From: Tetradesmus obliquus
Lineage: Eukaryota > Chlorophyta > Chlorophyceae > Sphaeropleales > Scenedesmaceae
DNA: 64,000 bases
NCBI GenBank assembly: GCA_030272155.1
Contig: CP126199.1
Location: forward strand, 3,584,501-3,648,500
Direction: 5' to 3'
Part shown: one piece after another, positions 4,940-50,092 of the stretch
How the letters are laid out: the number at the start of each line of letters is the position of its first letter
Numbering within the stretch: position 1 is the stretch's first letter
Notes under the pieces: generated by a model
Told to the model about the DNA's origin: nothing
Seen by the model: the letters and a program-made list of their open reading frames with translations, nothing else
Database searches by the model: none
Translations under genes and position numbers: made by a program

Positions 4940-6954
4940 TCACTGCTGCTCAGCAGCAGCAGCAGCCTCCGCCTCACCCTGCTGAATCCACACGCAGAAG
5001 TCCTTGCCCACAGCCGCCTTGGCCCAGCCCTCCGCTGGCTTAGGTAGCAGCGGCCCCATGTCATAGCGAGGGCCCAGCTTCAGCACCAGGCTGCCCTTGC
5101 TGCCTGTTACTTTTGCCACGTACATGTCGCCCTCAGCGCACAGGATCTGCAGCTTGCTCTTGGCAATGATGCCCGCATCGCGCCGCGCCTACAGCATAAC
5201 AACACGCAGTACAGAAACAGTACATAGCTGTGAGAAAAAGGTGGCCAACACGAGGGCAAGATATTTGGGTCGACGCCAACATTCACAAGGGACAAAGCGA
5301 GGCAGGGTTTGCTGGGTCCCCTGGGCAGCCCGTGTCTGCTGGCAGCTGCATGCCGACTCCCTTCATACCAAGAACTGCTGCCCTATCACATCTGTCACGC
5401 ATCTTAAACATCAGCCGCTGCAAACACCAGGCCAAGCCTACAACCCCAGCTGCAGCATGCCTCATTCTTGATGCCTGATGCCTCATGCCTGATACTGCCT
5501 CCTGCCCCCACCTGCATCAGTGCCCTGATCTCGCCCTGCAGCTTGCTGCCCCAGTCAAAGAAGTGGTCAAACGCAACGCAGGGCATGCCTGGGTGCGTCA
5601 GGATGTACGCGTAACCCTGAGACACACGGTCACTGGGGAAGGGCCAGTGGCGCTGCGTGCTGCCTGCAGCAGCAGCAGCAGAAACAAGGCAGCAGCAGCA
5701 ACAGAGCAGCAGACGAGGTGCTGTACTCTTGAGCAGTGGCACATGTGTTGGTCGGAACCAGGCAGTACATGTCTGCCGCTTGACAATTAGGCTCAACGCA
5801 GCACATGAAAACCACCCAGCGCACGAGGTTGTCACAGCATGTGGCAGCACATCAATGCACAGCAGCGTGTGTCAGCCCACCTGTGTCGTGGTTGTCCACG
5901 AACGTTACTGCGCGCTGCGGCCACCAGCCGATGAGCCCGGGCGCCTTGTTCTTGCTGTCAGCCAGGCGCCAGTACTCGCAGTGCTTCACAGCTTCCTGCA
6001 AGTGCAGTAGGTGAGCACCACACAGCAGTCGCACGCGGTGTTGATGCCGCGGAATGTGGACACGTGCTGTGCTGTCTATTTGTGTAATGGCAGGCGGCCG
6101 TATGTGGGCGGAGCCCAACCCGGACTGGCAGAATAAGGCATGGCAGCAACACCAGCACAGTTGCACTGCACATGATCTCATTCCAGTGACTTGCTCAGCA
6201 GGCCACTACCTGTTTAGCACAAGCTGCAGTGCACATGCTGCATTTGCTGCTGCTCAAGACGCAGCCCACCTGCAGCACGCCCTTAGTGACAAAGTCAAAT
6301 GCAGTGCTGCGGCGCTGCGTGCCGTCAATCCAGTTGCAGATGCGCTGCCGAGCGTCGTCCTGGTTCTTCCCCAGCGTGGCTGCAGCAGCAGCAGCAGCAG
6401 CAGCAGCAGCACACACGCCACTGGTCACGCAATGCACGTGCAGTACATGCAGACAGAGCAGCAGAGCAGCGGCAACCAGACGCTGCAATGCGCAGGCTGC
6501 ACATGTTCAGTAAAGGTGAGCAAGCACCTGCTACAGCCTCAGTGTGTCACACGCACCAATGTGATACATATAGCATTGCATGCTGCTACTGCATCAGCGT
6601 GGTTTGAGCCACTGCCGTCCCAGTGCAGGTCTGCAACAGCACCAAATGCAGCCGTGCATTGCGGCTGAGCAAACTACTGCTGCAACCACAGGTCGTTTTA
6701 CATGCAAAGTGCATGCCGCAGCAGCACTGCCACGCACTGCCGTCCCGTACAGGTCCGCAACAGCACCAAATGCAGCTGTGCAATGCAGCTGAACAAATCA
6801 CAGGATGTTTCACATGCAAAGTGCATGCTGCAGCAGCGTGGTGTCACTCACTGCCGTCCCAGTGCAGGTCTGTCCAGACCTCGCCCACATTGAGGTCATT
6901 CTGTGTGCCGCTGCCCTCCACATACTGCGTGATGTACTTTGCGCCATAGCCCCT

Positions 6955-7005
<51 letters not shown>

Positions 7006-9328
7006 TGTGAGCCAAGCCACACAGACAGCAGCGTCCACGCACGCCAAGAGACTACCTCCTACAAGCACAAGCTGCACCCGCACCCCCCGCGCACCAGCCA
7101 CGCTGTTGAAGGTGCGCTGATGTCACAACCAGGCACAGTCCTGTGCCAAATTGCAGCCCATTCACTGTCATAGCGTGCAGTATGCTGCAGCTTTCTGGGA
7201 ACCAGCGGTAGTGAAACAAATTGTAACATGTGCTCCTGATGTGAACATGCAGCAACAAATCAAATCATTGTCTCACCTGGCAAAGTCGAAGCGCCAGCCA
7301 GTGAAGCCCACATTGTCCCGCAGGTGCTGCAGCCAATGCACCAGCGCCTCGCGCAGGTGGCTGTTGGTGTGGTCCAGGTCAGGAGCGCCTGAGTTTTTGC
7401 AACATTGTAGCAACAGTGCAATGTTCAGCACCGTTGATGCAGCACACAAAGAGCATGACAGCTGATGGAACCGCGCAGGCGTATGAGTACCAGCACTGCT
7501 GGCATGTGCATGGTCCACACAGCTTGCAGGAAGAACTCTCTGTGATTGCTGCAGAGCTGGTGCTGGTGGCCGTGATGCTGTTTTGGCAATGCCTGCTGGC
7601 TGAATACGTTTTAGCCGCAAGATTTTCACAGTCTTCCTTGTGCTGCCCCTGCAGCATCTGCCTCACAAATCGTACCACATTACAGTCATTGGCGCTCACC
7701 CCAGAAGTCGTCGCCAGTGTCCTTGTTACCCTGCCCGCCAAACTCATGGTCGTCACACGTGATTGCCCACTGGCCCCTGCAGCAGCAGATAACAGCCACA
7801 TGCAGCAGCAGCGCAAGGCAACTGTTTGTTGAACACAAGCGCAGGCATGCAGAGCCACACAGGTATAGCAATGCACCCCGCACACACCCTGTACAAGCTT
7901 GGCTGACAATTGCTGTGCTTGTCTGTTCCGTTACAGCCAGCCCTGTCCACAGATGTGACACTTTGGCAAGCGCATAGCTCGCTCCATGTGCAGTGGGCTC
8001 ACCAGTCAATGGAATGCCCCTCATGGTCGTGGTCATCATGGTAGTTGTTCCACCTGCCATGCTCGTCCTGGCTATCAGCACACCTGCAAGGCGGCCGCAG
8101 CAGCAGGAGCAGAGCAGCAGCCCAAACATACACACAGCTTGACCCAAATCCTGCTTGTTCACCAGTTACGAGATGGCGGCGCTGCAGCAGGGCCACACGC
8201 ATTGCTGCCAGCATGTCACTGGGAGGGTAGCAGGCACAGCCGCACAAATATGACAGCAGAATGCGCATCCCCCACTGCATGCACGCCTCGCAAGCATTAA
8301 AAACCCCTGCATCAACACAAAACAGCCCCGTGAACCACACTGATTATGAGGAAACCCCGGCTACATACCTGTGGTTGATCACAATGTCAGCCAGTGGGGC
8401 GATGCCTGCTGCCTTGAGGGCCTCATTCAGCTCCACCAGCTGCTGCTCATTGCCATACGCAGAGCTCAGGTTGTACAGCTGGCCCGGCATGTAGCCCTGC
8501 AGCAGCACACAGCACAAACATGGTGATTATACATACAGATAGATATCCAGAACCCTGCGCAACTTCTGGAGGCTTCCGTTCTTCTGGTGACTGCTGCTGC
8601 TGTAGCTGGTCTTCCAGTGCTGCTCCTGCTTACCTCTGGTGACACGCTCTGGGAAGGAGGAGGCAGCCAGATGTGTGTGAAGCCTGCACCCTGCATTGCC
8701 GTCACATGAAAATGCAGCCAGGGGGCCGCCCAGTATGAAGATGTAACAGATGGCTGCTGCATCTACGGACCAACCTGGAAGTGCTGCAGGCATTGCTCGT
8801 GTGCAATTTGAAAGATGCCTAGAACATGTGGCTGCACTGCTTGTATGCTTGCTCGCGGCGCAAGCAAACTACCCAGCTACTTGCATTGTCCATGAAATTG
8901 CCGCTGCACGCAGTTGACGCCACGCATGCTCTGCGCTGAACAGCAGCTGTACAGCCACACCAACCTGGATCTCAGGTACTTTATGCCTGATGACGTTGTA
9001 CCAGGGGTGCGTTTTGTGGCTCTCCCAGTGGAAGCCTGCAGGAGCATGCAGGTGAGCCAAGTTGTGTACAGGCCCATGTGACAGGTACTGCTGCTGCTGC
9101 TGCTGGACCCAGGCTAGACCCACCTTGCAGCATCACGCCATCTGTGCCCAGGTGGCCTGGCGTCGGGCTCTCCAGTTCCTCGACGCAAGGGTCTGCTGTA
9201 GCTACTTCTACTGCAGCAGCTTGCGGCCTGCACAGCGTGATACGCCTAGCCATGACCGCATTGCGTCCTGCCCGGCATCGGACCCCTGCAACGCCCTTGG
9301 AGGTTTGGGACCTGCCGAGAGTGTTCAT
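4940..9328 (-). CDS. Alpha-amylase (plant type, GH13), probably plastid-targeted
   Basis: Endo-hydrolysis of alpha-1,4-glucan (starch). Twelve exons: 9328-9124, 9035-8965, 8690-8634, 8496-8369, 8083-8003, 7776-7700, 7388-7277, 6952-6852, 6379-6270, 5995-5881, 5663-5512, 5188-4940. They give 485 residues with consistent phases. GH13 landmarks: region I DIVINHR (about 148-154), region [10 protein letters not shown] with nucleophile Asp about 241, region III GEVW with acid/base Glu about 268, and region IV FVDNHDT with Asp about 351. The C-terminal antiparallel beta-domain ([12 protein letters not shown], then DFCVW) matches plant amylases. About 65 residues precede the GVMLQGFHWES start of the barrel; they are Arg/Ser/Ala-rich and could be a chloroplast transit peptide (inference). 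The open frame extends upstream of ATG 9328 only from a GTG codon, so the ATG was chosen. Intron 8 carries two echoes of the exon 8 donor edge. The last residues form a short Ala/Glu/Gln tail. Confidence 0.93.
6587..6872 (-). repeat. Splice-junction echo array, amylase exon 8 donor
   Basis: The end of amylase exon 8 and about 100 bases of intron 8 are repeated twice in the intron. The block CACTGCCGTCC starts at 6610, 6735 and 6849 (the last is the real exon edge), giving spacings of 125 and 114. Each unit also shares an AACAGCACCAAATGCAGC block and an ACATGCAAAGTGCATG palindrome. The copies lie on the intron side only. Confidence 0.85.
6953..7003. repeat. (CAG)16 microsatellite at amylase exon 8 acceptor
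   Basis: On the sense (minus) strand this is a CTG run ending in CAG directly before exon 8 at 6952. The repeat therefore replaces a conventional polypyrimidine tract. It is intronic, not coding. Confidence 0.9.
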
Positions 9329-14100: not shown

Positions 14101-14562
14101 AGCTGTCCGCGCCACTTGGTGACACTGGCGGCCTCTGGAGGAGTGGTTGCCTTTGTGCTGAGGGTGGCGAGCGCCGCAAGCCATGACTTGCAGACCAGGC
14201 GAGCGCGCCGCAGGTCAGCAGGCGACAGCCACCTGGAAACATCCTGTTGAGCGGTCAGCATAACAGACAATACATAAAATTAAAGTGTTTATGATGACAG
14301 GAGCTGCTAGCTGCAGAAGGAGACTCCAGCAAACTTGCTGTGCCTGCAGGCAGCTGCCTGGCTACTGCCCACTTACAGGTGCCTTGGGCTCTTGCACATG
14401 CTTTGCACAAGCTCAGAAGCATCAAATCGCCTGATTTACATTACTGCATACTGCTCGCGCCTCTAGAGCGCCTGCTGAATGCTGTCTGCCGCTTCCCGCC
14501 TCACTGCGCACCCTCAGTATCTTCTCCTCCATGAAAGTCCAATCCGTCTCGTCTCCGGACAT
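11145..14562 (-). CDS. F-box / leucine-rich-repeat protein
   Basis: Likely substrate-recognition subunit of an SCF ubiquitin ligase. Exons 14562-14512, 14243-13941, 13721-11145 give 976 residues. The F-box (about 8-40) is split by intron 1: WTFMEEKILR joins DVSRWLSPADLRRARLVCKSW, the typical F-box ending. Cys-containing LRRs follow (for example LQELTIGSKL, LKELRIRG, LETLELKNCGK), interrupted by a 300-residue Ser/Gly/Ala/Gln-rich insertion (about 180-495) and a second insertion (about 640-740). A C-terminal LRR block then ends with LQELDVSDCGGVS and LVQLDVCGCKG. An in-frame ATG at 14691 would add 43 residues. An acceptor 60 bases upstream of 13721 (before HHFQSML) is also in phase, so exon 3 could start there. 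Target and pathway are unknown. Confidence 0.85.
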
Positions 14563-24179: not shown

Positions 24180-24213
<34 letters not shown>

Positions 24214-29149: not shown

Positions 29150-30764
29150 CTAGGCGGTGAGTGCAGCCGTCTCTGCGGGCAGCCAGCCCTCTGCTGCCGC
29201 CTGCGCCAGCAGCTTCTCAAAAGCTGCCGGGGCGCCTGGCGCGTCCAGTGTCTCATCCGCCATGGAGTCCTTTATGCGCTTCAGGCCCTGCGTTGCATGG
29301 CAATTAAGTTGCAGAAGAGCTGAGACAGAGTGCAGGGAGCGCAAAGGAGCAGCGAGTTGGGGCTGGCAGCGTCCTATCCGCCATGGAGTCCTTTATGCGC
29401 TTCAGGCCCTGCGAGACAAGTGGCGGAACAAAGTGCGGAAGATGGACGTAAGAATTGTACAATAGATGGTGCCGTCAAGCAATAAACATGAATCGGCTCG
29501 TCTCGGTGATGTTGACAGACGTGCATGTGACTGCACATTCTCAACGCCACGCAACAGTCACAGTAGAGGCCGCCAGGCTATTCTGAATGAAGTTTACAGC
29601 GCACAGCACAGCATGCTATCAACAAGTTTTTCCCTCGAGGATCCCGAGCTGGTCTTGCGCGAAAAAAGAAGAAGGAAAAACACGAGACGAGAGTCCATTG
29701 CCCGCACCTGTGCCATCTGCGTGCTGCTGATGACGCCGCTGCCGCTGAGCTGCCTCAGCAGCCCCGTCAGCTGCTGCGCCTTGTCGGGGTACTCAAAGCC
29801 CAGCTCAACAGCAGCCTTGACCAGCTCGTGGTGGAAGTGGGGCAGGCCCAGGTCCTTGAGCACCTGCGGCAGCAGCAGCAGCAGCAGCAGGCCTGATGGA
29901 AAAAGGAGTAGCAGGCCAGACACGCGACGCGAGGGCTGCCGACTAAGTGTGTAGCCGAACATGCCTGTACTCTCACAATCATATGCAGCTGCTGCAGCCA
30001 AAACTGTGGCTGGAAACACAACAAACAACTCTTAACGCTAACCACTCACCGCCGCCACCTCGCTGCTGCTGCCCGCCACCATGAACTCGTCCAGCGCGTC
30101 CCGCATCTGCTTGCGCACATCCTCCAGCGACAGGCCGCCGCCGTGCCAGCAGGTCTGCAGCCGCTCCGCGGCGTGCCGCTGGCTCAGCATGGCGCCTGCA
30201 GCCGCAGCAGATCCGGTAAACAATAATCAGCCCAGCATGTGTTTGCTGCATCCTCAGCATGCCAGTGTGAACTTCTAGCGCGGCCTGTGTCAGCTGTTCT
30301 GCCGACGGCACAGCACAGGGCAGCACCGCACATGTGAGAAGCCTTCCCAGCTTTTTACGCGTGGGGCCGACACACGCAATTAGGTTATTCCAGCTAACCA
30401 CCGCCCGCATGCGCACCTGTCGCCTGCACCACAGTGATGCCCAGGCCCTTGACTGGCAGTGAGGGCAGGCAGCAATGCCCAGGCTACCGCATGTTGTGTG
30501 CAAAAGCACATAACACAACAAAAAGGGAGAAAAACCTGCACCTGCCGCCTGCACCACAGTTGATGCCCAGGCCTCCATCAGGCAGACAGGGCAGCCACCA
30601 GATCTTTCTAAGCAGGTTTTACATATTTCTAAGCAGTTTTTACACGAAATAATACTGCCCGCACCTGTCGCCTGCACCACGGTGATGCCCAGGCCTCCAT
30701 CAGGCAGTGAGGGCAGGCAGCTGGCCAGGAAGGCTGGCGGCAGCACCTCATCCACAACGGCACT

Positions 30765-30797
<33 letters not shown>

Positions 30798-31109
30798 GCG
30801 GCGCAGCAGCAGCAAAAAAATGACATGCAATGTCAGTAACATGTGCCGTACATTGTTGCAGATGCACCCATGCACAAGGACGGCATGCTATGGAAAAAAA
30901 CGCACACAGCCAGCCCTCTGATCAGCTGCAGATGGCACGCAGCGATGCAGAAGGCAGGTGTGTCCATCAGACCAACAGCAGCAGCAGCAGCAGCAGCAGC
31001 GAACATGGCACCCCGCCAGCAGCAGCCCCATTCCCCTAGCCGCAATGCACTCACCGCCCCAGGAGGAGGCTGAGCAGGTGCACCGCTTTCTCTCTGGTGT
31101 GCCCACGCA

Positions 31110-31147
<38 letters not shown>

Positions 31148-31722
31148 ACATGCAACCCCGCCACCAGCCACCCCACCCACCCGGCCCCCATGCACTCACC
31201 GCCCCAGGAAGAGGCTGAGCAGGTGCACCGCCTCAGGGATGTCCAGCACCAGGTCATCAGCAGCAGAAAGCAGCCGCGTGAAGCCAGACACCATCTGCAG
31301 CAGCAGCAGCAGCAGCAGTAGCAGCAGCAGCAGCGACATAGCAGCAGGCAACTTCAGTGCCAGACACGCGCCGCACAGATCCGCCACCGCCGACACCCCT
31401 TGTCGATGTCACAAGTCGTACATGCTAGTGACATGTTATATGACATGTTCAATAACAGATACCATAACAGCCGCACCTGGTCGTCGCTGATGACGCTCGG
31501 GTGCAGCTCGCTGAGCAGTCCGCTGGCCATCTCGCGCTCCCTGTCACGCCTGTCCATGGCCAGTGTGACCACCTGCTTCACAAACAGAGGGTGCAGCCCA
31601 GGCTGGCCAAGCTCCAGCAGCCTGGCAGCAGCAGCGGCAGCAGCAGCAGCAGGATGGTTGGTGACAACCTGCTCCACAAACAGAAGGTGCAGCCCGGGCT
31701 GACCAAGCTCCAGCAGCCTGGC

Positions 31723-31760
<38 letters not shown>

Positions 31761-31913
31761 GATTATTGACAACCTGCTTCACAAACGGAGGGTGCAGCCC
31801 AGGCTGGCCAAGCTCCAGCAGCCTGGCAGCAGCAGCAGCAGCAGCATGATTATTGACAACCTGCTTCACAAACAGAGGGTGCAGCCCAGGCTGACCAAGC
31901 TCCAGCAGCCTGG

Positions 31914-31947
<34 letters not shown>

Positions 31948-32010
31948 GTGGTAAGTGACAACCTGCTTCACAAACAGAGGGTGCAGCCCGGGCTGATCAA
32001 GCTCCAGCAG

Positions 32011-32043
<33 letters not shown>

Positions 32044-35000
32044 GTGCAACCACCCGCATCACAAACAGAGGGTGCAGCCCGGGCTGACCAAGCTCCAGCA
32101 GCCTGGCAGCAGCAGCCTGGCAGCAGCAGCAGCAGCAGCAGCAATGTTATTGACTACCTGATCACAGAGGGTGCAGCCCACCAGCCTGGCAGCAGCAGCG
32201 TGGTTAGTGCGTCGCAGCCTGTGCAGACCAAGCAGGAGATATGCAGGCACAGCAGGTGCGCTTTGGTCTAACAGTAGCAGCTAACTGCACAATCATGATG
32301 CTTGTACACTGCTTCGCACCTTGCAGCGACCTCCTGAGCATCAGCCGAGTTGAAAAACTCCTTGAGAGCAGTTGCCATCGCCACCTTGAAAGCAGGCACA
32401 CCAGCCCCACCCAGCCCCACGCCATTCGCAGCACCAGCAGCACCAGCAGCAGCAGCAGCAGCAGCGCCAGACGGCGAAGCAAGGCCGCTGCCACCACCTG
32501 CAGAGGCACTGGAGGCTGGCCGCTCTGCTGCTCCCGGTGCTGCTGCTGCTGCTGCGGCACGCAGCTCTGCCAGCAGCTCTGCTTCCAGCAGGCCTGCTGC
32601 TGCTGCGGCCTGCAGTGTGCTGCTGAATGCGTCCTACAGGATGTGGCGGGGCCGCAGTGAAGTTGACGATGCTGTGCTGTGCAACAAGTTGTGTGTTGAA
32701 GGCAGCTGCCACTTGTGTTCATCACAGGTGGACAAGACAAAGATACAATGTGCACAGTGCAACTGTCATGCTGAAGGCGTCACCTGTGCTATGCATGCAC
32801 AAGCAACACAACAGCAGGGACCATGCAGGGCAGGCTTCATGCCAACATCTGGCAGATACAGCAAGCACCCAACATGCACATGCAGCTACAAGAAAAAAAA
32901 CCCCACGCAGCTGTGTGCCGCATGCTTCGCTATCATACAGTCAAACGTGGTCAAACAGTCTAAACCAATCTACTCACTGGTGCTGCCGGGTTGTCCAGCG
33001 CGGTGTCTGCCAGGTTTGCTGCTGTGCGCTGGAAGCCCTTGGCCAGCTGGCTGCTGTTGACCTCGCTGCTCTCTGACAGCCTGCAGTCAAGCACAACAGC
33101 CAGGCACATGTTGATCAAACAAAAGGAACAGATGCACACCACCAGATCTGTGTGAGGCGTTAATGCGTGCCAGCTGGCTGCTGTTGACCCCGCTGCTCTC
33201 AGACAGCCTGCAGTCAAGCACACAACCAGCAGGTGTTCCCGCCGCAATCTGTGTGGAATGCTTGCATGCACGTGCACCAGATACAAAAGTACATGGGTGA
33301 TCAGGACTTTGGCTACAAAGTCTTGTTCCTGTGTGGCAGGTTCTGGAACCGGCCGTGTTGACTAGCCCCTGGCCTGAACATTATGAAACATCGCCTGCCG
33401 CTGCTTGCACACAGAGTGTCTTGCACCGCATCTTCACAACACAGCACGCCCTGGTCACCTCTTCAGCAGCGCGATCACAGCCTCCGTATGTGCCGGGGTC
33501 TCCATGGCTGCATGCAGCGCCTGCTTGACTAGCTCGTGGTGAAAGAAGGGCACAGCCAGGCCCCGCAGGCAGCGCGAGGCTTCTGCTGCATCCCTTGAAT
33601 CCAAGTACTCCGACAGCAGCTGCAAGGTAGATGTAGCAAGAGAAGATTGAACAGCAGGACAGCAGCAGGGCGGCAACAGACAACAGCAGGGCAGCAGCAG
33701 CAGCAGCAGCAGCAGCAGGGCACAAAGGAGGTGAGCTTGCAGCGCCTGCTTGCCTAGCTCATGGTGAAAGAAGGGCACAGACAGGCCCCGCAGGCAGCGA
33801 GAGGCCTCTGCTGCATCCCTTGAATCCAAGTACTCCGACAGCAGCTGTGCATTGGAGTGCAGCGAGATGGGTCGAGATGGGTGAAACAGCAGGTCACTAG
33901 CAGACACATCAGCAGGGCAGGTAGAGTTGGCGATGGGTGAGGCGAATCAGAAGCAGCATACCAACTGCCAAACAAATGCCGCAGCGCGCTGCAGAGAAGG
34001 CCTGGCACAGATACTTGCAGCCGCCCTGGCCGCACAACAACGATCGAGTTACGCATAAGTACACATCACACCTTGGCGATGCGCTCCTTGGTCTCCGCAT
34101 AGCTCTGGCCCGCGCCGCTGCCCCAGCAGCGCAGCATGCGCTCCGCGCTGTGCCTCGCCGCCAGGTGCAGCTCGCAGCGAGCCTTGAGGGCTGCCAGGTT
34201 GCTGCCCTCAGGGGCGCCTGATGCCCAGCGCTGGATGCAGGCCGGCGGCAGCACGTCGTCAACCTGCATTGGCGGGCAACCGTGGTCAAACGTGGTCAAC
34301 CGTGGTCAAAGCAGTCAAATGCGACTCATACTGGTAGGTGAGTTAACACGGAAATGACAAGGGACATGCGTGAAAAACCCGGGGCAGGCCTTGCAGTTAG
34401 CCAACACTCTTTAGCCAACACCCTGCTGCTTCGGCCTCCCTGCTGTTGTGCCCTTCCTGCTGCTCTCATGACAAAAGCTTCGTGGTGAACTATGAATGCT
34501 CCTGTCACGCACGCCACCCGGGGCTTGAGGTTAGCTTAGCGCGTTGAAGGCCAGCGTGCATTCAGGTGGAGCAGGCGTGTAGAGTCTACTCCTCCTGATT
34601 CTCCACCTTGATGCATGATGGCCTTCGCACTGTTGATTGAACAAGCATCTGATTGCATGCTCAAGGGGAGAGAACAGGGACATGCACTTGCTAGCTGAAG
34701 CACTCGCCACATTGCTTGCATGTGCATGAAGCCAGGAAAGCTGCTCAAACAAAACTCGATTGACCCCAGCATAGTGACACCTTGACACTCACCACCACCC
34801 ACGCGCTCAGGAGACATATTAATGCCCTATCTGAACTCTACTCCGAGTCTGCCCCCAAACATCAGCTCACCACACCGCGGCCGATGCGGAGGAGGCTTGT
34901 TTCTTCTGAAACATGCTGTTGTTGATTGTATGCTGCCGTTGATTAATCTACCTCCGGGCATCAGCCTATTGTGTCAGGCATGTACAGAGCTGCTGCTGCT

Positions 35001-35897
35001 CGATGCAACCCTTGCTTCCATGCCTGCCCCCAGCAATCATTATGCATTCAACTCACGACGCCGCATGCAATGAAGAGGTGAGCAGCTCCATTGCACACAA
35101 CAAGCAGGTGGGCTGCTGCTGTCATCAGCTGCTGCTGTGACAGCTGCCGCTTTCATCAGCAATCAAACAATTAATTTAATACACACACCACGCCGCGCGC
35201 AATGAACCAAGTTGAGCAGCTCCACTGCACGCAACAAGCAGGAGGGCTGCTGCAGTCATCAGCTGCTGCCTGTGATCAACTGCTGCTTGCATCGGCAATC
35301 AAACTTAATCAGAACACACCACGCCGCGCGCAATGAACAGGCTGAGCAGCTTTCACCGCATGCAACAAGCAGGAGGGCTGCTGCAGTCATGAGCTGCTGC
35401 TGTGATCAACTGCTGCTGTGTCAGTGATTACAACTCACCACGCCGCGCGCAATGAAGAGGCTGAGCAGCTCCACAGCATCAGGCACGTCCAGCAGCAGGT
35501 CGTCCAGCGACTCCACCAGCCGAGCAAAGCCCTTCTGCACCTGCTCCCCGCTCAGCACCTGCAAGGACACAAGAAACAAAGGACAACCGTACAGCACATA
35601 TTGCTTTTGTGATCCCATACAATTCAATTAGGAAGATGCCCGTGTTCAACTACACTGCAGCCCGCCGCATCTGATCACGCTGTTGACCAAGTTTGACCAG
35701 CCTCACCTCTGCGTACAGGTTGCTCAGCAGGCTGCTGGCCATCTCCCTCTCCTTGTCCTTGCGGTCCAGTGCCAGCGTCACCAGCCGCTTCACAAAGTAG
35801 TGGCCCATCGTCTCCACAGGGCCCAGCTCAGACAGGCTGTCGGCAGCGTTGGACACGTCGCCGCTGCTGAAGTACTCCTCCACAATGGCGTTGACCT

Positions 35898-35932
<35 letters not shown>

Positions 35933-39230: not shown

Positions 39231-39262
39231 TCAAATGCGCGCCATGGCAGCCAGGTTTGGAG
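39179..39262 (-). repeat. Echo of the RAD21 stop-codon region
   Basis: The last codons of RAD21 and flank (39228-39262: AGATCAAATGC-GCGCCATGGCAGC on the plus strand) are repeated at 39179-39213 just past the stop codon, spacing about 48. This is the one echo at a transcript feature other than a splice site. Confidence 0.75.
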
Positions 39263-39662
39263 TGATCAGCACGTCCCCATACGCCTCCTGCTGCTGCAGC
39301 CCCACCAGCCCCTTATTCCCCAGTACCAGCATCTCGTAGAACCAGCGGCAGGAGTCCAGCCTGCCATGCCCCTGAGTCAACCCCTGGAAGCTCAGCGACA
39401 CTGCACCAGCAGCAGCAGAGCCGCCAGCCGCCCCTGCCTTGCCACCTGCCTGCTTGTCCCCAGCCTCAACAGCAGCAGCAAGGCCAGGCGGTGGTACCGC
39501 GCTGATTCGGCGCTTGCTGCCGGTGGCAGGCGTGCCCATGCCGGCAGCGGCAGCAGAGGGGCCGGCAGCGCCAGCAGCAGCAACAGCGGCGAGCTGCAGG
39601 CGCCGCATGACCAGGCGCGTGCGGCTGGTGAAGCCGCCATCAGTAGGCAGCCGCCCATCTGT

Positions 39663-39698
<36 letters not shown>

Positions 39699-42600
39699 AG
39701 GATGCGGTGACGTCAGCAGCACCAAAGATGGATGCTCCAACCCAAACAGTTCATCCGCAGCAATCATGCAGCCGTTGATGCTCTGCGCACCGACATACAT
39801 GCACAACATCAAGTTTCATTTGCAGCAGCAGCAGCATGCTTCAGCCGAAGCACTCACCCTCCTCCTCCTGCTCCTGCAGCGTTTCCGCATCAGCAGGCCA
39901 CGCCACGCCTCCCTCCTGCGTGCTAACCAGGCTGCTGCCAAACACAGCAGCAGCAGCACCACCACGCACTGCAGCACCCTTGCCGGCCGACCCCGGCGCT
40001 GCTGCTGGCGAGTTCTCCTTGTCAGAGTGCTCCTGCTGATCTTCAGCATGGAACATTTCCGCATCATGGTGAACTTCATCGTCCTCCAGCATGCCGCCAG
40101 TCAGCACAAGGCCTGGCCCCTGCTGCTGCTGCCGCTGGCTGGCAGCAGCCACGCCTGCTGCATCCAGCGGCTGCAGCACACCATCAGCAGCTTCAGCAGT
40201 GCCGCACAAGCTGCCTGGGGTATAGCCGTCAAACCCTGCGCTGCCAAAGCCAGCACTGCCCAGGCCTCCTGTGCCGCCTGCACTGCCGAGCACCCCAAGA
40301 GGAGCCTGCCCTGCCACAGTCGCTGGCGTCTGCTGAGCACCAGCTGCAGCACCAGCAGCAGCAGCAGATCCAGGGGTGCTCAGTGATAGTGACAAGCTGC
40401 TCCTGGTGGCACCGCTCAGGCGGCCAGCACCAGCAGCACCAGCAGCCGCCCCAGCAAACTCCAGCTCTTCCTCACCCACCATACCAATCTCATCCGGCGC
40501 AGCAACAGGCGCCACCGCAGCTGCGCCGCCGCCGGGCGCTGCCGCTGCTCCAGCCGCCGCAGCTTGCAGGAACATCTGCTGCAGCTCGGCCGGCAGCCTG
40601 AGACCTAAACCGCCAACCACACCCAGCCCGTCTGCTAGGCTGCCGCCATACCCCAGCAAGCTGCCTGCCCCCAGGCCGCTGCTGCATGCAGCAGTGGCAC
40701 TGCTGCTGGCGCCGCCCAGCAGAGCCGCGAGTGCAGCTTGGCTGCTGACGCCGCCACTGCCACGGCCGCCGCCTGTCCCAGCAACTGCCAGCTGCAGCTG
40801 CAGTCCGCCTGCTGCTGCTGCTGCTGCTGAAGTGCCTGCTGCTGCTCCTGGCGCAGCAGCAGCCTTGAAGGCCAGTGACATGGAGCCGCTGAGGCCAGCG
40901 CATACCAGTGCAGCCTCCAGCCTGAGCCGCTTGCCCTGGGACTGCAGGCGCTGCAGCAACAAACAGACAGCGGCAGCAGGAGGTCAGTGAGAGACATCGG
41001 TGCGGTGAGAATATCAATCTCATGTGGTGACAAATTTCAGGCTTTCCAGGGCCTCCCATAAACACACAACGTCGAGTCGGCAGCATTCCACAGTAACACA
41101 ACCACAGGGAGAATGGGCGTTTCACAGTAAGCTGCATGTCCTGTACACAACACATGCATGCCATCAGCAGCACACCTCACACTGAAGCTATCATTTGGGT
41201 AGCTGCCTGCCTTGCGTGCAACAGCACACTCCATGCACACACCCCGCTGCACTGCTCACCGTTTGATCCAGCAGCGGGGCCCTGTCGGCCAGCAGCGCTC
41301 GGATCTCAGCCGCAGGCAGCTCCGTCGGCGGCTGCCGGCGGCCGGCAGCAGCTCTCTTGCCTGCAGCACTGCTGCTGCCAGCAGCAGCAACACCGTCCGC
41401 GGGCTCCTCAGGGATCCTGTCAATGACCATGCGCCGCTTCTGCCCCAGCAGAGCTGCTGCTGCGCCGCGCTTCTGCTTCGCTGCTGCCTTGGGCTTGGCC
41501 TCCTCTGCAGCTGCAGCTGCTGCATCGCTGCTGGCGCCTTCCGTTGCTGCAGCTGCAGCCTGCTGCACCGCATCGTCCTCCTGCTGCTGCTGGCGTGTGC
41601 GGCGCTGGAAGGTCTTCACCTGCTGGCCCTGCTGCTGCTCGCCAACCGCCGCCTCTGCCGCATCAACCTCCATCACATCTGCATCCTGCTGCTGCTGCTC
41701 AACTTCAGCAGCATCTCCCTCTGCGCCAGCTGCAGCGCCAGCAGCTGCATCAAGCCCAGCAGACATGCTGGGCGTGGGCGGCAGCAGCCCTTGCATGCCT
41801 CCAGCCCTGCCACCTGGTGACCCAGAGGTATCACCACCAGCGGTGCCTCCAGTGTAACCAGCAAACCCCTCGCCGCCCAGACTGCCGCCAGCAGTGCCGC
41901 CAGGGGTGGGAGGCAGCACATCACCACCGACAGCAAAGCTGCGGCCTCCTGCCCAGGTGCTCATGGGTGTCTGGCCCTCTGTGAGGCCTGCTGCTGCTGC
42001 TGCTGCCCTTGCGCCGGCTGTTACATCTGGCGATGCTGGCGGCTCGTCTGGCAGGTCAGCAGGCGGCGGCTGCATCTGCTCATCATCATCGTACTCTGAC
42101 CCAGCAGGAGTGGCCTTGCCTGCAGGTGGAAACAAGCACGATGCCAATGAGGAGGCTGGCAGAAGTGACGTCACATCAGCAAGACAGGGTTTGCCGCAGT
42201 AACCGTAATTGAAATTAAGGCCTGCTTGCAAGCAAGCACAGTGCACGCGATTGAGTGTCTGCACTGCTCTCATTCACGCCCCAAACGCACTCAGGCTGCT
42301 TCCTCCGCACACTGCGGTGCCACCACGTGCTTCAGCAGCGCCCTGCCAGCAACCTGCTAACATCCACAGCACGCAGCCAACGCAGCGCCTCACCTCTGGG
42401 GCCGTCCACGCCTGGCGTGGCACAGCCCAGCCCCAGCAGCCCCGAGCCGTCATTGCTGAGCGCCTGCTGCTGGCTTCCAGATGCAACAACCCCGACACCA
42501 GAAACCTGCTAGCACCCACAACAAGCGGGCCGCGCAGCCAGCTCAGCGCCTCACTTTTGGGGCATCCATCCTGGCGTGGCACCACGCCCGCTGCTGCCCA

Positions 42601-44157
42601 GCCCCAGCAGCCCCTGAGCAGCCCCAGTGAGCAGACTGTCAGCATCCTCAACACACAGATCAACAACACATCCCAGCGCAGCGCCTCACCTCTGGGGCCG
42701 TCCACGCCAGGCGTAGCACCGCCCAGCCCCAGCAGCCCCAGCGAGCCGCCGCTGCTGAGCGCCTGCTGCTGGCTGCTGGCCACTGCCCGCAGCCGCTCCA
42801 CCTCCAGCTCATCCAGGTCCCAGGCTGCGGCTGCCTCCTCATCTTCCGCATTGAAGTACTCCTCGCCATAGTCCTGGCTGCTGTGCAGGCCGAAGACGCC
42901 GGAGATGTCCTGCAAGCGGCCGTGAGTGGTAGCAGGAGGGCGGCAGGAGAGGGGCAGGAGCGAGGGGCTGAGGGATGAGTCAGTGGTGGCGGCGAGCTGG
43001 CAAGGTGAAGCCAGTGGGAGCAGTTGCCAGCAGCCTAGTGGATTGTCAGGCAGCAACAAGCAGTGAGCCGTGCAATGCAGCTGCACATGCTTCAACACAC
43101 TATCGCCTTGTTGGGCCAAACCTTCACTGGCCTCCACCTGCACTCATGCCTGCTGCTATCTCTATGCTGCTGCTATCCCTGCTGCTGCCCGCACCTGTGA
43201 CATGGGCCCCGAGCCTGATGGCGCCGCCAGCCCCAGCTCAAAAGTGCCGCCCTGCAGCTCAAACATGTTGAAGCCGCCAGCGCCGTCCCCTCCCAGCAGC
43301 ACATCCTGCTCCCAATAGATGTCATCCACATCCAGCTCAAATGCATCGCCAGCCCCCTTCTCCCCTGCTGCTGCCGCTGCTGCTGCCGCCTTGCGGCCCG
43401 CGGCCCTGCTGGCTTTGGCTGCTGCTGCGTGCTTGGGGCCCAGCAATGTGATGGCCTCCACTGGGGCGGTGAGCGAGCCTGGTGGCAGGTTGACGCCGTC
43501 TGCTGGGCGCAGCGCTACGCGGATCTTGACCAGTGCGTCGTTGCAGTCCTGCTGCAGGTAGTTGACCTAATCAGCATGACAAACACAGCATGACACAGGA
43601 CGTTGTGTGGGTGTGCAGAGTAAGCTGGGTGGCCTGTGAGAGATGTGTGTGCAGACGCGTGCGCTGCTGCTGCTGCTGCACTGTGTGGGTTGCTCTGTCT
43701 AGATGGCTTCTGCTGGGCTGCATTGATCAGCATGTGGGATTCTCTGCCTGTGGTTACTTGTGCAAGCATGGGCTGAGGCCGTACAGCGCATGCCAGTGAC
43801 AGCCAGCAGATTGCTGCTGGGGTGCTGGCAGTGGTATTCACTACCCACCATGCGACTGCTTCCATACAAATGTTGCGGTATCAACATTAACATGGACCTT
43901 TGCAAATGCCGGTGATCACTGTCAGCCATGCCCATCTGCAGGCCCACCTTGCGTGCATAGATGCGCACAACTCCAAGCAGCAGCTGCCCTGACAGCCTCA
44001 GCGCCAGCGGCACCTCAGAGTCCAGCAGCGTGTCGACGCTTGCAGGAATCGAGGTGCTGTTGATCTGCTGCCGCTTCAGCTGCCTGTCCAGATGTGCTGC
44101 AATCCACACCAAGCCCAGTGGCCCCTTGCGGGCAAGGATTTGGTTTGAGTAGAACAT
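39231..44157 (-). CDS. RAD21: Cohesin kleisin subunit RAD21/SCC1
   Basis: Bridges the SMC1 and SMC3 heads in the cohesin ring that holds sister chromatids together. Exons 44157-43948, 43566-43195, 42909-42690, 42119-41260, 40950-39858, 39658-39231 give 1060 residues. The N-terminal SMC3-binding domain is nearly canonical: MFYSNQILARKGPLGLVWIA, then LPLALRLSGQLLLGVVRIY-like sequence SEVPLALRLSGQLLLGVVRI and VNYLQQDCNDALVKIRVAL. The C-terminal SMC1-binding winged helix is CRWFYEMLVLGNKGLVGLQQ then YGDVLITPN. Between them lie about 850 residues of Ala/Gly/Gln-rich, acidic sequence, longer than in most plants. A YGEEYFNAEDEEAAAAWDLD segment and a second acidic stretch (DDDEQMQPPPADLPDEPPAS) are candidate regulatory parts. 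A meiotic REC8 identity is possible but the N-terminus fits RAD21 better. Intron 3 and the stop codon region carry echoes. Confidence 0.93.
42380..42745 (-). repeat. Splice-junction echo array, RAD21 exon 3 donor
   Basis: The end of exon 3 (LGLLGLGGATPGVDGPR) with GTGAGGCGCTG donor and about 45 bases of intron is repeated twice. GCGCCTCAC starts at 42385, 42546 and 42681 (real), spacings 161 and 135. The left copy keeps an intact GTGAGG; the middle copy has AGTGAGG with a changed exon edge. Confidence 0.9.
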
Positions 44158-45975
44158 CGCTTTGCAACGAGTAAGTGGTGACTGGTTGTGCTAGGTCCTG
44201 GAGCTATGGTGTGTGTCGTACTACTGCTGCTCCTGCTGCTGCACACGGTTTGCTGTGGAGTGGCTGCTGATGCTACTGGGTGCTGCTGCAGCTAGTGCCC
44301 TTCCAGCAGCAAACTGGCTCACTGCTGCTGTGCTGTTCTCAACCTGCGCTCAGTGGCATCGCTGCTGGATCACATCCTGCACACGGGAAATGCAAGAATG
44401 CACGACTGATGTCAGCAGGTGCAGGGCTGTCTCCAGTCGTCATCAAAGTATCCCACTGCAGCAGCATGCTGTGTTTCAACCGTGGCTGTTGCTTACAGCT
44501 GCCAGGGTTGGCGTGCGTCGACACTCAAATATAGTTGCATTTTAACGGCACCGTTTCCGAGTGCTTCTTTTGGTGAAGTCGTGCAAGCCACTGAGATGGG
44601 AGGCAGTGGTTGTGCACTGTGATAGCAAGCCTGGACACAGCCCTACTCGTCCCGGCGCAACACTTACAGCTGGTTCAGATGTTAATGCAGTACATGGACG
44701 CTTCGATTGCAAGCAGTGCTGCCTAGGTAGTGGCGGGTGTGTTGTTGAGCAGCTAGCTTCAGAACCAACATGTGCAACACGATAAAATTCATCAAAAGCT
44801 AGCATAAGCATTTCCGATATTGACACTTGGGGGGTAAAGCGACGCATCCGCCATCTTGTTCTTCTGATTTGAAATTTGTGTTCCACTTTACGTGTGCCTG
44901 TATGCATGTCTGGGCAACCAGCTCATCAGGTGTTCACGGCAAACTATAAAAAGCTTTTCGACTGGCAGCGGTCGGCAGCCTCATTCCATCTGCTGCGATG
45001 CTTGCTTCAGGGCCTGCGCCTTCAGCAGGCCTGCTTCAGACCCCAGTTATATATGCATATTATGATTTAAGAGTAACTTCAAATTGGCTTTCGCACCTGG
45101 CTGAAGGGCAAGGCCGACCGTGGGGCCGTGTGCATCTGCAGGCACAGTACACATCTCAGAGCACCCACATTCTGCACACAGCTAAGACTACCGCACACCA
45201 TGCGATCGCCGCTTCGGTCCTCTGACTTTAGGTACGTTATGCTCATTTCTTCCTTGGCACCTCTGCCAGCACTTGAAGGCGGACAGTGTGAACTATGGAC
45301 AAGCTGCTTGCCGCACTGCTGGAACCACGCTGAGCATGCATGGCAAACAAGAAGAGGTGTGCAGCGCGCTTCATCACATCGGACAAGCATTAGTGCGCTT
45401 GTGTAGCCGGGCTCAGCTGCATCATGGACTGGTGACATCCTGCACGTGGCCCTAGTCTTGAATGAGGTGGGGTGCGCAGGAACATCTGTCAGTGCTGAAC
45501 TTGCGGTGCCTCGTCTTTATCTGAAACAACTTTAGGTGCTTCTAACAACGCAATATATGATATGGGACCAGCGTGCGGAGCTGTCGATCGACGGGTGCCT
45601 CTCGCTGCTCCGACGCACCTCCCCAACAACCGTCATCGCTAAACCGTATAACCACGTGAACTCCGAACATGTGTTTCGTCAACTATTTGCATCATTGAGT
45701 ATGATAATCTAACAAGCAAAGGAAAGCGTCCAAGGTTCGGTTGCTTGCACAGCAGCCTGAGGCCTGACGAGCACTGCTCAGCAGTGCTGGCAGCAGATGT
45801 AGTCCATAATTTGCTGCTTGGCTGGGTGGACACTAGTATATGGTAATGAGAAAAGCAGTTCCACACCGCAAGCGCGTCAAGTTGGACTGGGGCCTAGCAG
45901 CATTTCTACTGTTAGCAGTAGCAGCGGTGAGTTGTTGATCCATTCAACTTCACCGTACTTTGCCATGCACATTAC
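44158..45975. other. Divergent promoter region of RAD21 and the glycosyltransferase
   Basis: 1.8 kb head-to-head spacer. No further gene recognised. The centre (about 44.5-45.9 kb) has lower GC and few triplet repeats. An imperfect CTG-rich stretch lies at 44222-44345 near RAD21. No clear TATA or other core element can be assigned. Confidence 0.4.
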
Positions 45976-48900
45976 ATGCTTTTGCATCATACCTCACAAT
46001 GCAGCCCACAGTGGAGCAATCTTTTCGTCTACTTGCTGCAGGTTCCACTGCTTCTGCTCAACAGAAGCATCAAGCATGCACAACATGCACAGCCTACAGC
46101 TCCACAAACAAGCAGCGCAAACAAGCAGCAGCAGGCAGTGCAGCGCCATGTGCAGTCACTGCTGCGCAAGTGCCCCCTGCCAGGGTACTGCATCCGGGAC
46201 GAGGGCTTGCCCGGCCCTTCAGAGTACCTCAGCAGCAGCGGCCCTGGACACCCAGGCATGCACCGGCAGCACGAGATTGTAACACAGCATTTAACCAGCA
46301 GCGGCTTCCAGGTGGGTGCTCAAAGTGAGGAAGGTGGCATTACAAGCTCGACTTCACGGCATTGACGGCACAGCTGTGCACAGCCGGCGCGTCCGCAGAA
46401 GCATTGCAGTGCACACAGCAGTTGAGCGCAGCTTGGAACAATGAGCTTCATCCTGAGTGCAGGTGTGTCGAAACCTGGCCAGTGCCCGCATGCTAGTGTT
46501 TGCACTTCTCTGCTACAAGATGGGGTACATGTTCTTGTGTGTTTGACAGCGCGCAAAGCTGCTGCGCTTTGTTGACCATCACTGCAGGTGTCAAAGTTGC
46601 AACGCACTATACGCACGCAGTGCTCGCATCAACGCTTGACAGCCGCCACTCGCCAGCTTGTGCTGCTGTGCGGACGTCGGATTCGAAAGGACGAATCCAT
46701 GCCGTAAATGCCCCTGCACCCACCTTCCCTGATGTGCTGCAGGAGCGGCTGCAGCAGCTGCGCAGCCTGCCTGACAAGCGAGGCATCCTCATCAGTGCAG
46801 GCGGCCGCCATCACATCGGCAATGCGGCAGTGCTGCTGCATGTGAGCTGGGAGGGGGATAACACAGCACACTGTGCATGCAGCAGGGTCAGGGAGTAAGG
46901 ACCCTCAGCACAAGAACGTGTAAAGCAAAGGCATTTGCAAAGTGCAGCAGTGAGCGTGCAGAGTGTGATGGCCTGTTGCGGGACACTGTCGGCTTACGCG
47001 GCTGCATAACAGTAGTTGCATTGCCTCTTCAAGGGACTGCTTTGCAAACTGCTGTATGCTGCTGGATCTCTTTGTGGGCAGCTCTGTATTAATATAGCGT
47101 ACCATCAACGCGAGCACTGCTGCCATGCCACATGCAGCTGCACAGAACCATGCGTCTAGATGCTAATCAAAGACCGCCTCCTGAGCCACTGCTGCGCATC
47201 GACACCTGCACAGCTCCATCTGCTCTAATTGTCTGATCTGCTATACATCATCACATCTTTCACAACTTGCTGTCATCAACACCTCTGTGCTGCTCAGTCA
47301 ATTGTAAGATTCCTTGGCTTTCCATGCACACAGGTGCTACGCCACCACCTCAACTGCAGCCTGCCAGTTGAGATCGCCCACAGGGGGGAGGCTGAGGTGG
47401 ACAACGTCACCCGGGCATCACTGGCGGCTGCCTTTTCACCGCTGCACTGGCTGGACCTCGAGCAGCAGCGCTACCCGCAGCACCACAACAAGTGAGCACC
47501 CGGACACCACCAGCGACACTTGGCACAGCTCACACTGCATGATGATGCATGATGCATGATGCATGATGGCGTTGATGCTATGGCTTGATGGGTAACATGA
47601 TGATGATGAGCATACACTGCACTACATCAGCCATAGCCACCAATGCCTTTGTGCGTGAGCCGAGGCTAGGCTTGTACTGCTGGCTGGCAGCTGCTGTCCC
47701 TGCACGCGCTGCAGCCGGCTTTCAGGCGTGTCATGATGTAATGCATAGTTTGCTGCCGCTGCTGCTGCTGCTGCTGCTGCTGCCAGGGACTTCACCATGG
47801 ACAGGTATGAGCCAAAAATCTACGCCCTCTACCACACACGCTTTCAACAGGTGAGCCATGGCCAGCAGCAATACTTGCAGCCTGGCGCAGCATGCTGCTA
47901 CTAGCTTAGTCACTAAGCAGAGACAACACAGCCAGTTAGCCTTGGGTATGGAGGCTTCTGCATGCCCCGGCAACTGCCAGCCAGCCTCCTGCGTGTATCA
48001 TACACAGTGTGTGATGTACGATGACGTCGCTGCTCTGCCTTGCTGAGTGTCACACAATGCTGACGACCCTGCCACCTGCGGTGGTCATGTGCTGCTGCAG
48101 GTGCTGATGCTGGATGCAGACAACCTGCCCCTCAGGGACCCCTCCTACCTTTTTCAGTCCCCGCAGCTGACTCAGCACGGGGTGATGGCCTGGCTAGACT
48201 TGTGGAGCCCAGGGCTGGCCAGCACCACCTTTGTGGGCTGGGACAGCGTGTATCCGCTGGTGGGGCTGAACAAGGGACCCTACCTGGTGAGCATCTGCAT
48301 GGAGAATCAAGCAAGCATGCTTTGTGGGACAGTGTGTACCCGCTGGCGGGGCTGCACAAAGGCCACTACCTGATCAGGCACAGATGCGCTAGACAATGCA
48401 TGTGTTGTGGTGGCTGGCCAGCACCACTTTCGTGGGCTGGGACAGCGTGTATCCGCTGGTGGGCCTGAACAAGGGACCCTACCTGGTGAGTCGACTGCCA
48501 GCGCACTACACCATATGACACCCGTGTTAGAGGCTGGGTCATAGCAAGGCTGATCTGTGGGTGTACCTGCAAGTAGGGCTTGTAAAAGCCATAACTGGTG
48601 AGGCGCGGCTGTGTATAAGGCCATGCATGTGTTGGAGTGGCTGGCCAGCACCACGTTTGTTGGCTGGGACAGCGTGTACCCGCTGGTGGGGCTGGTCAAG
48701 GGACCCTACTTGATGAGTCACACAGACGTACTGACTCTGTTGCCGGTGAGACACATCTTGTGCCACCATCTGCTTGAAGCAGCCATGCCTGGTGGGACAG
48801 CGTGTGTACCCGCTGATGGGGCTGGTCAAGGGGCCCTACCTGGTGAGGCGCGGCTGTACAAGGCCATGCTTGTGTTGCAGTGGCTGGTGCAGTGGCCGGT

Positions 48901-50092
48901 GCAGTGGCTGGTGCCTGGTGAAGTGCGAAGGGCCAGGCACTCACCCAATCTGAGGGCATTGTGGCTGACTCTGCAGGAAGCCATATGCATGCATGCGCTC
49001 GCCCCAGACCTGGTTTGGGGTATGGTGGCGCTGAATGCCATCGCAAAACCCCTGTGGCCCGTACACGCTGTACTGGTGACTAGAGTGGCCACTTGTTCCG
49101 GCTCTCTCGTCCTTTTTGTGGTGTAAGTGTGACTCACCGCCGGCTAACTGGGCTGATGTTTTATTGTGTCTGATGTGGCTGCAGGAGGCGCTGACAGGCG
49201 GCCAGGGCCACGTGCAAACTCTCTTCAAGAATCTGCCGCCATTACAGCTCGTGCCGCACACTCTCCAGGCAGCTGAGTTTGTGTCTGATGTGGCTGCAGG
49301 AGGCGCTCACGGGAGGCCAGGGCCACGTGCGGCGCGTGGCTGAGAGCGGGCAGCTGCTGCTGGACCGCGTGGCGCATGCTGACGTGCTGGAGTGGCTGTG
49401 GCTGCTCACTAGCTTCAGCAGGGACCTGTACAAGTGAGTGTACACGTGAGAGGCGCAGCGTGCCCCAGGAACAGCAGACAGGGTTTAAGTAGGTTTTACA
49501 TTAACAGACAACGGTGCTGCTCACCGTGAGTGTACAAGGACGAATGTATATATGCGCAGGATGTAGATTTGCACACCTGCAAGCAAAGCTGGACGAGGAG
49601 ACCCCCGCTCAAAGTTTCCTGAGTGAGAGTGACAGGTGCGGCAGCATGCACCTGTATCAGCGCCCAGGGGTGCAGCTCCCTGAGGTGTACTACAGCCCTA
49701 CGTAAGTTAGTGTCTGGATCAATGGCAACAGTGCTGCTGTGCGTGCCAGGCACAACCATTTATGTTCGCAGTGCTTGTTGCAAGTGGCTTGTGGAGCAAG
49801 TTTGTAACACACCATCACCAACTTGTTTCCCTGCATCCGCTTGCTGCCTGTCAGGCACATCCTGGGTGACAAGGACACCTGTGGCTTTGCCTTTTCTGTG
49901 CTTGAAGAAGCTTGTGTAGCATGTTGTTGGCGCACCCTTCCAACCCCGCTGATTTCGTCCCTGCACGATTGCAGGCACATCCTGGGTGACAAGGACACCT
50001 TTGGCTTTGGCTTTGCCGCTGCGCGCAAGCTGCACCAGCTGCATGCCGTGCCGCTGCCGCCAGGCATGGCGCTGCGCTACGAGGCCAGCGGC

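What the first reader, a model, noticed from the sequence alone, without database searches (positions are those of the whole stretch)
6587..50020. Splice-junction echoes: exon edges repeated inside flanking introns at about 120-base spacing in four unrelated genes
At 13 or more exon boundaries in the amylase, MRF, RAD21 and glycosyltransferase genes, 35-90 bases of exon edge plus adjacent intron are repeated in direct orientation. Donor-edge copies lie only in the downstream intron and acceptor-edge copies only in the upstream intron. Measured spacings: 125, 114 (amylase); 132, 131, 119; 124, 123; 120; 130; 145 (MRF); 161, 135 (RAD21); 117, 120 (glycosyltransferase). Many copies keep a usable GT or AG. 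Intron gain by tandem duplication of AGGT-containing exon segments has been proposed for eukaryotes, but a recurrent, length-restricted, junction-centred pattern at this density is not something I recognise. It may be a lineage-specific mutational or retro-templated process that lengthens introns and builds decoy splice sites.
Basis: partly seen in the sequence, partly recalled or inferred. Interest (0 to 1): 0.93.

Follow-up and report, generated by a model that had tools for sequence, protein, structure and literature searches.

The report
Intron copies of neighbouring exon edges
In this unnamed eukaryotic genome about one sampled exon edge in ten, with its splice site, is repeated inside the neighbouring intron, most often about 120 bases away; the pattern is real and stronger at exon edges than simple neutral tandem duplication predicts, but its cause is not settled.

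Summary
The window lies in a 104.66-Mb, unnamed eukaryotic genome, and 13 of 25 other 10-kb stretches show the same pattern. With self-trained gene models, 43 of 486 exon edges (36 bp) have a direct copy inside the adjoining intron, against 0 of 486 inverted. The copy rate peaks in the last 40 exon bases (about 10%) and is 2-6% within the intron. 26 of 43 spacings lie at 100-155 bp (6.8 expected if uniform). 41 of 43 copies keep GT/GC or AG.

In 21 of 43 pairs the intron parts are also homologous, as tandem duplication of a unit of about 120 bp predicts; simulated neutral duplications keep such homology in about 90% of detected pairs. Differences between edge and copy lean to synonymous sites (pN/pS 0.2-0.3; I expect 0.43-0.5 for a neutral copy), but a broader alignment set gave 0.33-0.50.

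Best reading: boundary-crossing tandem duplications whose intronic exon edge and splice site decay more slowly than the surrounding intron. Junction-directed copying and plain neutral decay remain rivals. AGGT intron gain and introners are not supported; no evidence for retro-templating.

The parts
6589..6872 (-). alpha-amylase gene: donor edge of exon 6852-6952 (about 20 exon bases) and two copies in the downstream intron, spacings 125 and 239
   Evidence: Pfam; not in the strict set
29246..29413 (-). MA3 gene: acceptor edge 29246-29292 and upstream-intron copy 29367-29413, spacing 121; intron parts not detectably homologous
30412..30729 (-). MA3 gene: donor edge of exon 30665-30762 and copies 30535-30597 and 30413-30474, spacings 123 and 125; part of the farther copy was called an exon
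30973..31277 (-). MA3 gene: donor edge of exon 31200-31294 and copy, spacing 145
31565..32203 (-). MA3 gene: array of about six 96-bp units that repeat an acceptor edge (LLELGQPGLHPLFVKQVV) with intron sequence; my gene finder read part of it as exon
33042..33229 (-). MA3 gene: acceptor edge 33042-33103 and copy 33169-33229, spacing 127
33510..33847 (-). MA3 gene: acceptor edge 33510-33622 (110 exon bases) and copy 33735-33847, spacing 225
35049..35479 (-). MA3 gene: donor edge of exon 35439-35558 and three copies, steps 119, 131, 132, whole-unit homology
42346..42774 (-). RAD21 gene: donor edge of exon 42670-42909 and copies, spacings 135, 152, 296; one copy (42394-42505) was called an exon
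   Evidence: Pfam; not in the strict set
48213..48887 (+). Mannosyltransferase gene: donor edge of exon 48101-48286 and four copies (about 86, 199, 426 and 554 downstream); the last was called an exon (48783-48842)
   Evidence: Pfam
49164..49330 (+). Mannosyltransferase gene: acceptor edge 49279-49330 and copy 49164-49215, spacing 115
49852..50014 (+). Mannosyltransferase gene: acceptor edge 49972-50014 and copy 49852-49894, spacing 120

Best explanation
Short local tandem duplications with a unit of about 120 bp that cross an exon-intron boundary arise recurrently in this lineage and are sometimes re-duplicated into arrays (for the 28 pairs spaced 68-152: exon part median 41.5, range 19-95; remainder median 78, range 37-113). 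The original junction stays in use, so the extra exon edge ends up inside the intron; that the donor copy lies downstream and the acceptor copy upstream follows from the need to keep the message intact. Over time the intron part loses similarity, while the intronic exon edge with its splice-site core stays recognisable longer than neutral decay allows, which suggests partial purifying selection on it as a spliceable decoy or alternative site. Shown: junction-centred excess, spacing, orientation, and intron-part homology in about half. Inferred: that the rest are tandem too, splicing of the copies, selection, and the DNA mechanism.
For: Direct only: 43 of 486 against 0 of 486 inverted. Peak over the last 40 exon bases and first 10 intron bases at donors and acceptors. 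Spacing 100-155 in 26 of 43, 6.8 expected; spacing hardly follows exon part (r 0.23, n=28). Intron homology at p<=0.02 in 21 of 43 pairs, 13 of 28 at spacing up to 152. Arrays with near-equal steps such as 86/86/87/85, 118/118/136/120 and 119/131/132. Neutral simulation of junction-crossing units retains intron homology in 90-92% of detected pairs, copies at 0.1-0.2 of the neutral rate in 41-60%. Exon/intron copy-rate ratio: neutral uniform simulation 1.2-1.4, neutral junction-centred 1.5-2.4, copy at rate 0.25 4.0-5.9; observed 2.6-5.8. pN/pS 0.30 (CI 0.20-0.44, n=35) at single-copy junctions, 0.26 (0.18-0.36, n=35) for non-best copies in arrays. Donor copies match at +1 to +6 (0.85-1.0) and fall to 0.25 at +12. 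GT/GC or AG kept in 41 of 43.
Against: A broader BLAST set gives pN/pS 0.50 (CI 0.36-0.65) for 46 whole-unit alignments, 0.43 (0.31-0.55) for 50 edge-only and 0.33 (0.14-0.56) for 13 intermediate ones, i.e. neutral or nearly so; it may include false exons and counts arrays several times. Single-copy pairs with intron homology give 0.42 (0.19-0.94, n=8). In 38 alignable pairs exon-copy identity 0.887 against intron 0.845 is about the neutral ratio. Copy-specific changes in arrays are 47 synonymous, 46 nonsynonymous, 2 stop. The interval at single-copy junctions reaches the neutral value. The low end of the observed exon/intron ratio (acceptors, 2.6) is close to the neutral junction-centred simulation. 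No RNA evidence, no relatives; gene models are self-trained.
Confidence: 0.45

Rival explanations
1. Plain neutral tandem duplication everywhere, with survivorship: duplications inside exons are purged, intron-only ones become unrecognisable faster, and the conserved exon makes boundary-crossing ones look special.
For: Alignable arrays decay at about the neutral ratio; pN/pS 0.50 in the whole-unit BLAST set; intron homology in 21 of 43.
Against: Neutral uniform simulation gives an exon/intron ratio of 1.2-1.4 against 2.6-5.8 observed, and relatively more signal at -90..-60 than observed; 90-92% of pairs should keep intron homology, 49% do. An age distribution concentrated at one old burst would raise the ratio; I did not run that case, and the many copies with 0-1 mismatches argue against it.
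Confidence: 0.22
2. Junction-directed copying: a process tied to splice sites (for example template switching primed at splice-site consensus, or at boundary-positioned nucleosomes or paused polymerase) copies about 45 exon bases plus about 10 intron bases into the intron without the rest of the unit.
For: Sharp pairs such as L027 1415/1696 (46 of 46 exon bases identical, intron side unrelated after about 7 bases), L010 and L027 8478; 22 of 43 pairs without detectable intron homology.
Against: Pairs without intron homology are not young as a group: pS 0.20, pN 0.037, unexpected for recent neutral copies. Their spacings overlap those of pairs with intron homology. Spacing hardly follows exon part (r 0.23), which suits a fixed unit length.
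Confidence: 0.2
3. The copies are real coding pieces (mini-exons or alternative exon edges, in the manner of the boundary-crossing duplication reported for a potato RdRp gene), so both copies are under coding constraint.
For: Low pN/pS in the junction-level sets; the gene finder called some copies short exons (29 of 63 first-pass pairs had a copy wholly or partly called exon).
Against: The outer boundary of copies is no richer in splice sites than random intron positions (score above 3: 0.14 against 0.14); spacing is a multiple of 3 in only 8 of 43.
Confidence: 0.1
4. Mobile introner insertion with exon-edge target duplication, or an assembly artefact.
For: Direct repeats flank a spacer. One intron (L027 5250-5740) does contain a dispersed element.
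Against: Two echo loci gave no other match in the genome (that search skips very common words). For the MA3 gene region 40 of 567 candidates were scored and the short matches that I compared fall on triplet-repeat tracts. Duplicated edges are 19-110 bp, while one paper gives 3-9 bp target duplications for some introner families (PMC9860276, passages). Diverged copies in 14 of 26 sequences do not look like misassembly; no reads were available to test it.
Confidence: 0.03

Closest known systems
Boundary-crossing tandem duplication in the potato RdRp gene (PMC4974935, abstract read)
   Same: Tandem duplication that crosses an intron-exon boundary; splicing signals inherited from the parental junction.
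   Different: A single case that made a new spliced intron; here about 9-12% of sampled edges, both donors and acceptors, narrow spacing, and no evidence of a new intron.
[quoted passage not shown]
   Same: Short tandem duplication in a gene that creates extra potential splice sites.
   Different: There the duplicated exonic segment itself becomes the intron through AGGT; here copies carry their own intron-side consensus inside an existing intron, AGGT is not enriched, and 1 of 43 copies reaches the far intron end.
Introners (PMC9860276, passages read)
   Same: Recurrent intron-associated process, reported also from algae.
   Different: Introners are repeated families across a genome, some with 3-9 bp target duplications; echoes are local copies, and the two loci tested singly had no other match.
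Short tandem duplication from staggered or paired single-strand breaks, patch-mediated repair in plants (recalled; the listing gave no paper on it that I read)
   Same: Tandem duplications of tens to about a hundred bp without a mobile element.
   Different: I know of no preference for exon-intron junctions.
Intronic decoy exons or decoy splice sites regulating intron retention (recalled)
   Same: Non-coding exon-like sites inside introns.
   Different: Not, as far as I recall, copies of the adjoining exon edge; use in splicing is unknown here.

Membership tests
Tandem duplication crossing an exon-intron boundary | Direct repeat that includes exon edge and splice site on the same strand | tested here: met
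   43 of 486 direct, 0 of 486 inverted; 41 of 43 keep GT/GC or AG
Tandem duplication crossing an exon-intron boundary | Intron part duplicated too, head-to-tail units of one length | tested here: inconclusive
   Intron homology at p<=0.02 in 21 of 43 and arrays; not detected in 22 of 43
AGGT tandem-duplication intron gain | AGGT in the duplicated exon segment | tested here: not met
   7 of 40 echo edges against 71 of 438 others
AGGT tandem-duplication intron gain | The duplicated unit forms the intron, so copies lie at its far end | tested here: not met
   1 of 43 copies within 12 bp of the far intron end
AGGT tandem-duplication intron gain | New intron spliced out | not testable with these tools
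   No RNA data
Introner | Dispersed sequence family | tested here: not met
   Two echo loci gave no other match; MA3 region only short matches among those scored; other echo loci not searched singly, and one echo-dense stretch does hold a dispersed element
Introner | Short target-site duplications | tested here: not met
   Duplicated edge 19-110 bp
Functional decoy splice site | Splice-site core intact | tested here: met
   GT/GC or AG kept in 41 of 43; 23 of 43 score at least as high as the real site, median lower
Functional decoy splice site | Slower evolution than the surrounding intron | tested here: inconclusive
   Supported; not
Functional decoy splice site | Used by the spliceosome | not testable with these tools
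   No RNA data

The most novel reading that the evidence does not exclude
A genome-wide, splice-junction-directed duplication process, with intronic exon-edge copies then kept as working decoy splice sites, is a main route by which introns of this lineage lengthen by about 120-bp steps.
Probability: 0.3. Interest if true: 0.88.

Novelty: new variant of a known kind. Interest (0 to 1): 0.72.

Why it matters
A single case of boundary-crossing duplication is described in a paper whose abstract I saw; a genome in which about one sampled exon edge in ten carries a copy at a set spacing would let one test how introns lengthen, whether splice junctions attract DNA breaks or template switches, and how a cell picks the right one of several near-identical splice sites. 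It would also be a trap for gene prediction: my own gene finder called several copies exons.

Tried and rejected
Rejected, unsupported or disfavoured: (1) chance: swapped-flank null 0 in each of seven classes, 0.2 per replicate at the lower threshold; (2) inverted or hairpin origin: 0 of 486; (3) introner-like dispersed spacers; (4) AGGT intron gain; (5) copies as complete mini-exons; (6) in-frame use, spacing a multiple of 3 in 8 of 43; (7) plain neutral uniform duplication, disfavoured and kept as a rival. Led nowhere: the first gene-finder settings overpredicted tiny exons and were replaced; paralogous empty sites were sought and none found (in some only 40 of 567 and 39 of 1007 candidates were scored); global alignment of introns was uninformative because random pairs reach 0.80 identity. 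My pN/pS estimate moved from 0.19 to 0.21 to 0.26-0.30 after removing a best-copy bias; the broader set gives 0.33-0.50.

Rows dropped before counts: low-complexity repeats and edges; repeat pairs below the score limits; exons under 40 bp; introns under 120 bp and introns not flanked by exons on both sides for the junction sets; in the strict set, copies not wholly inside a called intron (63 first-pass pairs on 264 kb, of which 29 had a copy wholly or partly called exon).
Full report
SOURCE. The window is G000:C9:3584501-3648500 of a 104.66-Mb genome in 17 contigs; window GC is 57%. A table in PMC5966456 (passages) gives 57% GC and mean intron 462 bp for the green alga Tetradesmus obliquus; that its genome is of similar size is recalled. 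I did not establish identity.

CHECK OF THE OBSERVATION. Self-alignment shows the reported repeats and several more. Of the first 20 unlinked 10-kb stretches, 13 show local direct repeats in the same screen, though not all of these are exon-edge repeats. To place repeats relative to exons I trained a hidden Markov gene finder on the sequence itself (retrained on 314 kb). It keeps GTGAG donors and CAG acceptors; it has no RNA support and called some copies exons.

ENRICHMENT. First pass on 264 kb (450 bp each side, local score 44 or more on 36 bp): donor edges with a downstream copy 33 of 231, acceptor edges with an upstream copy 30 of 233. Controls (downstream, upstream): intron +10..+46, 3 and 3 of 218; intron -46..-10, 2 and 3 of 192; mid-intron 5 and 4 of 215; mid-exon 3 and 5 of 123; intergenic 3 and 2 of 186; swapped flanks 0 in every class. 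Strict pass on 314 kb (copy must lie in the adjoining intron of 120 bp or more): 20 of 239 donor and 23 of 247 acceptor edges, in 39 of 284 introns. Inverted copies: 0 of 486. Looser pass: 59 of 487 against 0.2 per null replicate. The strict copies come from 14 of 26 sequences, 13 of 25 outside the window; the window (10) and L027 (9) contribute most.

SHAPE. Copy rate by 30-bp window: donor 0.105 at -30..0, 0.059 at -60..-30, 0.016 at -90..-60, 0.018 at +10..+40; acceptor 0.106, 0.044, 0.019, 0.041. Windows starting at or beyond the junction range from 0.016 to 0.063, partly because copies themselves lie there. Donor copies match through +6 and fall to 0.25 at +12; acceptor copies fade more gradually. 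Nearest spacing: 26 of 43 at 100-155 (6.8 expected; maximum 14 in 2000 draws), 1 below 85. In a count with a longer search 23 of 49 echo-bearing junctions have two or more copies, often at similar steps.

ORIGIN. In 21 of 43 pairs the intron parts are homologous at p<=0.02, 13 of 28 when the spacing is at most 152, and many arrays are whole-unit repeats. So tandem duplication is well supported for about half. Others are sharp: L027 1415/1696 has 46 identical exon bases and unrelated intron beyond about +7; L010 has an array E-Z-E-Z-E whose first copy is preceded by unrelated sequence. A whole-genome search with these two loci gave no other match.

IS IT ONLY NEUTRAL DECAY? Simulated neutral duplications placed uniformly give an exon/intron ratio of 1.2-1.4, junction-centred neutral ones 1.5-2.4; junction-centred units with the exon copy at 0.25 of the neutral rate give 4.0-5.9 and about the right exon-side fall-off; the profile gives 2.6-5.8. 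Neutral simulations in this genome's own introns retain intron homology in 90-92% of detected pairs, and in 41-60% when the copy evolves at 0.1-0.2; 49% is observed. Divergence between edge and copy leans to synonymous sites: best copy per junction pN/pS 0.21 (0.15-0.30, n=53), single-copy junctions 0.30 (0.20-0.44), non-best copies in arrays 0.26 (0.18-0.36). The neutral expectation of roughly 0.43-0.5 is my hand estimate, allowing for transition bias. Pairs without intron homology have pS 0.20 and pN 0.037, so as a group they are old rather than freshly copied.

RESULTS AGAINST. A broader BLAST set gives 0.50, 0.43 and 0.33; exon-copy against intron identity in 38 alignable pairs is near the neutral ratio; single-copy pairs with intron homology give 0.42 (n=8); copy-specific changes in arrays are half nonsynonymous. 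Selection on copies is therefore suggested, not shown. The simulations assume uniform ages and a simple indel model.

HOW IT MOST LIKELY WORKS. A boundary-crossing tandem duplication leaves the message unchanged as long as the original junction is used, so it can persist; most units inside exons cannot. The extra exon edge then sits in the intron with a usable splice site (41 of 43 intact, 23 of 43 at least as strong as the real one). Either such copies are used at low level or in alternative messages and so are conserved, or the duplication process itself is focused on junctions. The data do not separate these finally.

LITERATURE. The nearest hit is a single potato gene with a boundary-crossing duplication (PMC4974935, abstract). 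In the listings of those searches I saw no report of a genome-wide pattern; they cover open-licence PubMed Central papers only. A 2025 comparison of Sphaeropleales genomes (PMC12571836) does not contain the word intron in its main text.

Noticed in passing
L027:5250-5740: This intron holds two related stretches (5287-5416 and 5571-5720); the second matches 34 listed dispersed places in the genome at 78-87% identity (39 of 1007 candidates scored), perhaps a short mobile or introner-like family. The intron also holds a diverged copy (about 5424-5459) of the donor edge of exon 5102-5249, with mostly synonymous differences by eye.
   Followed up: partly
L017:1-1130: 191-bp tandem array, about 91% identical, in sequence called intergenic.
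   Followed up: no
L011:7107-8313: 597-bp tandem pair, 98% identical.
   Followed up: no
L020:7915-9998: Long 108-bp-period repeat array in a stretch mostly called exon.
   Followed up: no
window:51805-51866: Perfect 18-bp tandem repeat (3.4 copies) inside the long open frame 50768-52144 of the mannosyltransferase gene model.
   Followed up: no
window:62376-62436: Uninterrupted 61-bp AGC tract, one of many CAG-type triplet tracts in and out of open frames in this window.
   Followed up: no
window:28500-37700: The MA3 gene has at least seven echo-bearing junctions, more than I found in any other gene of the window.
   Followed up: partly
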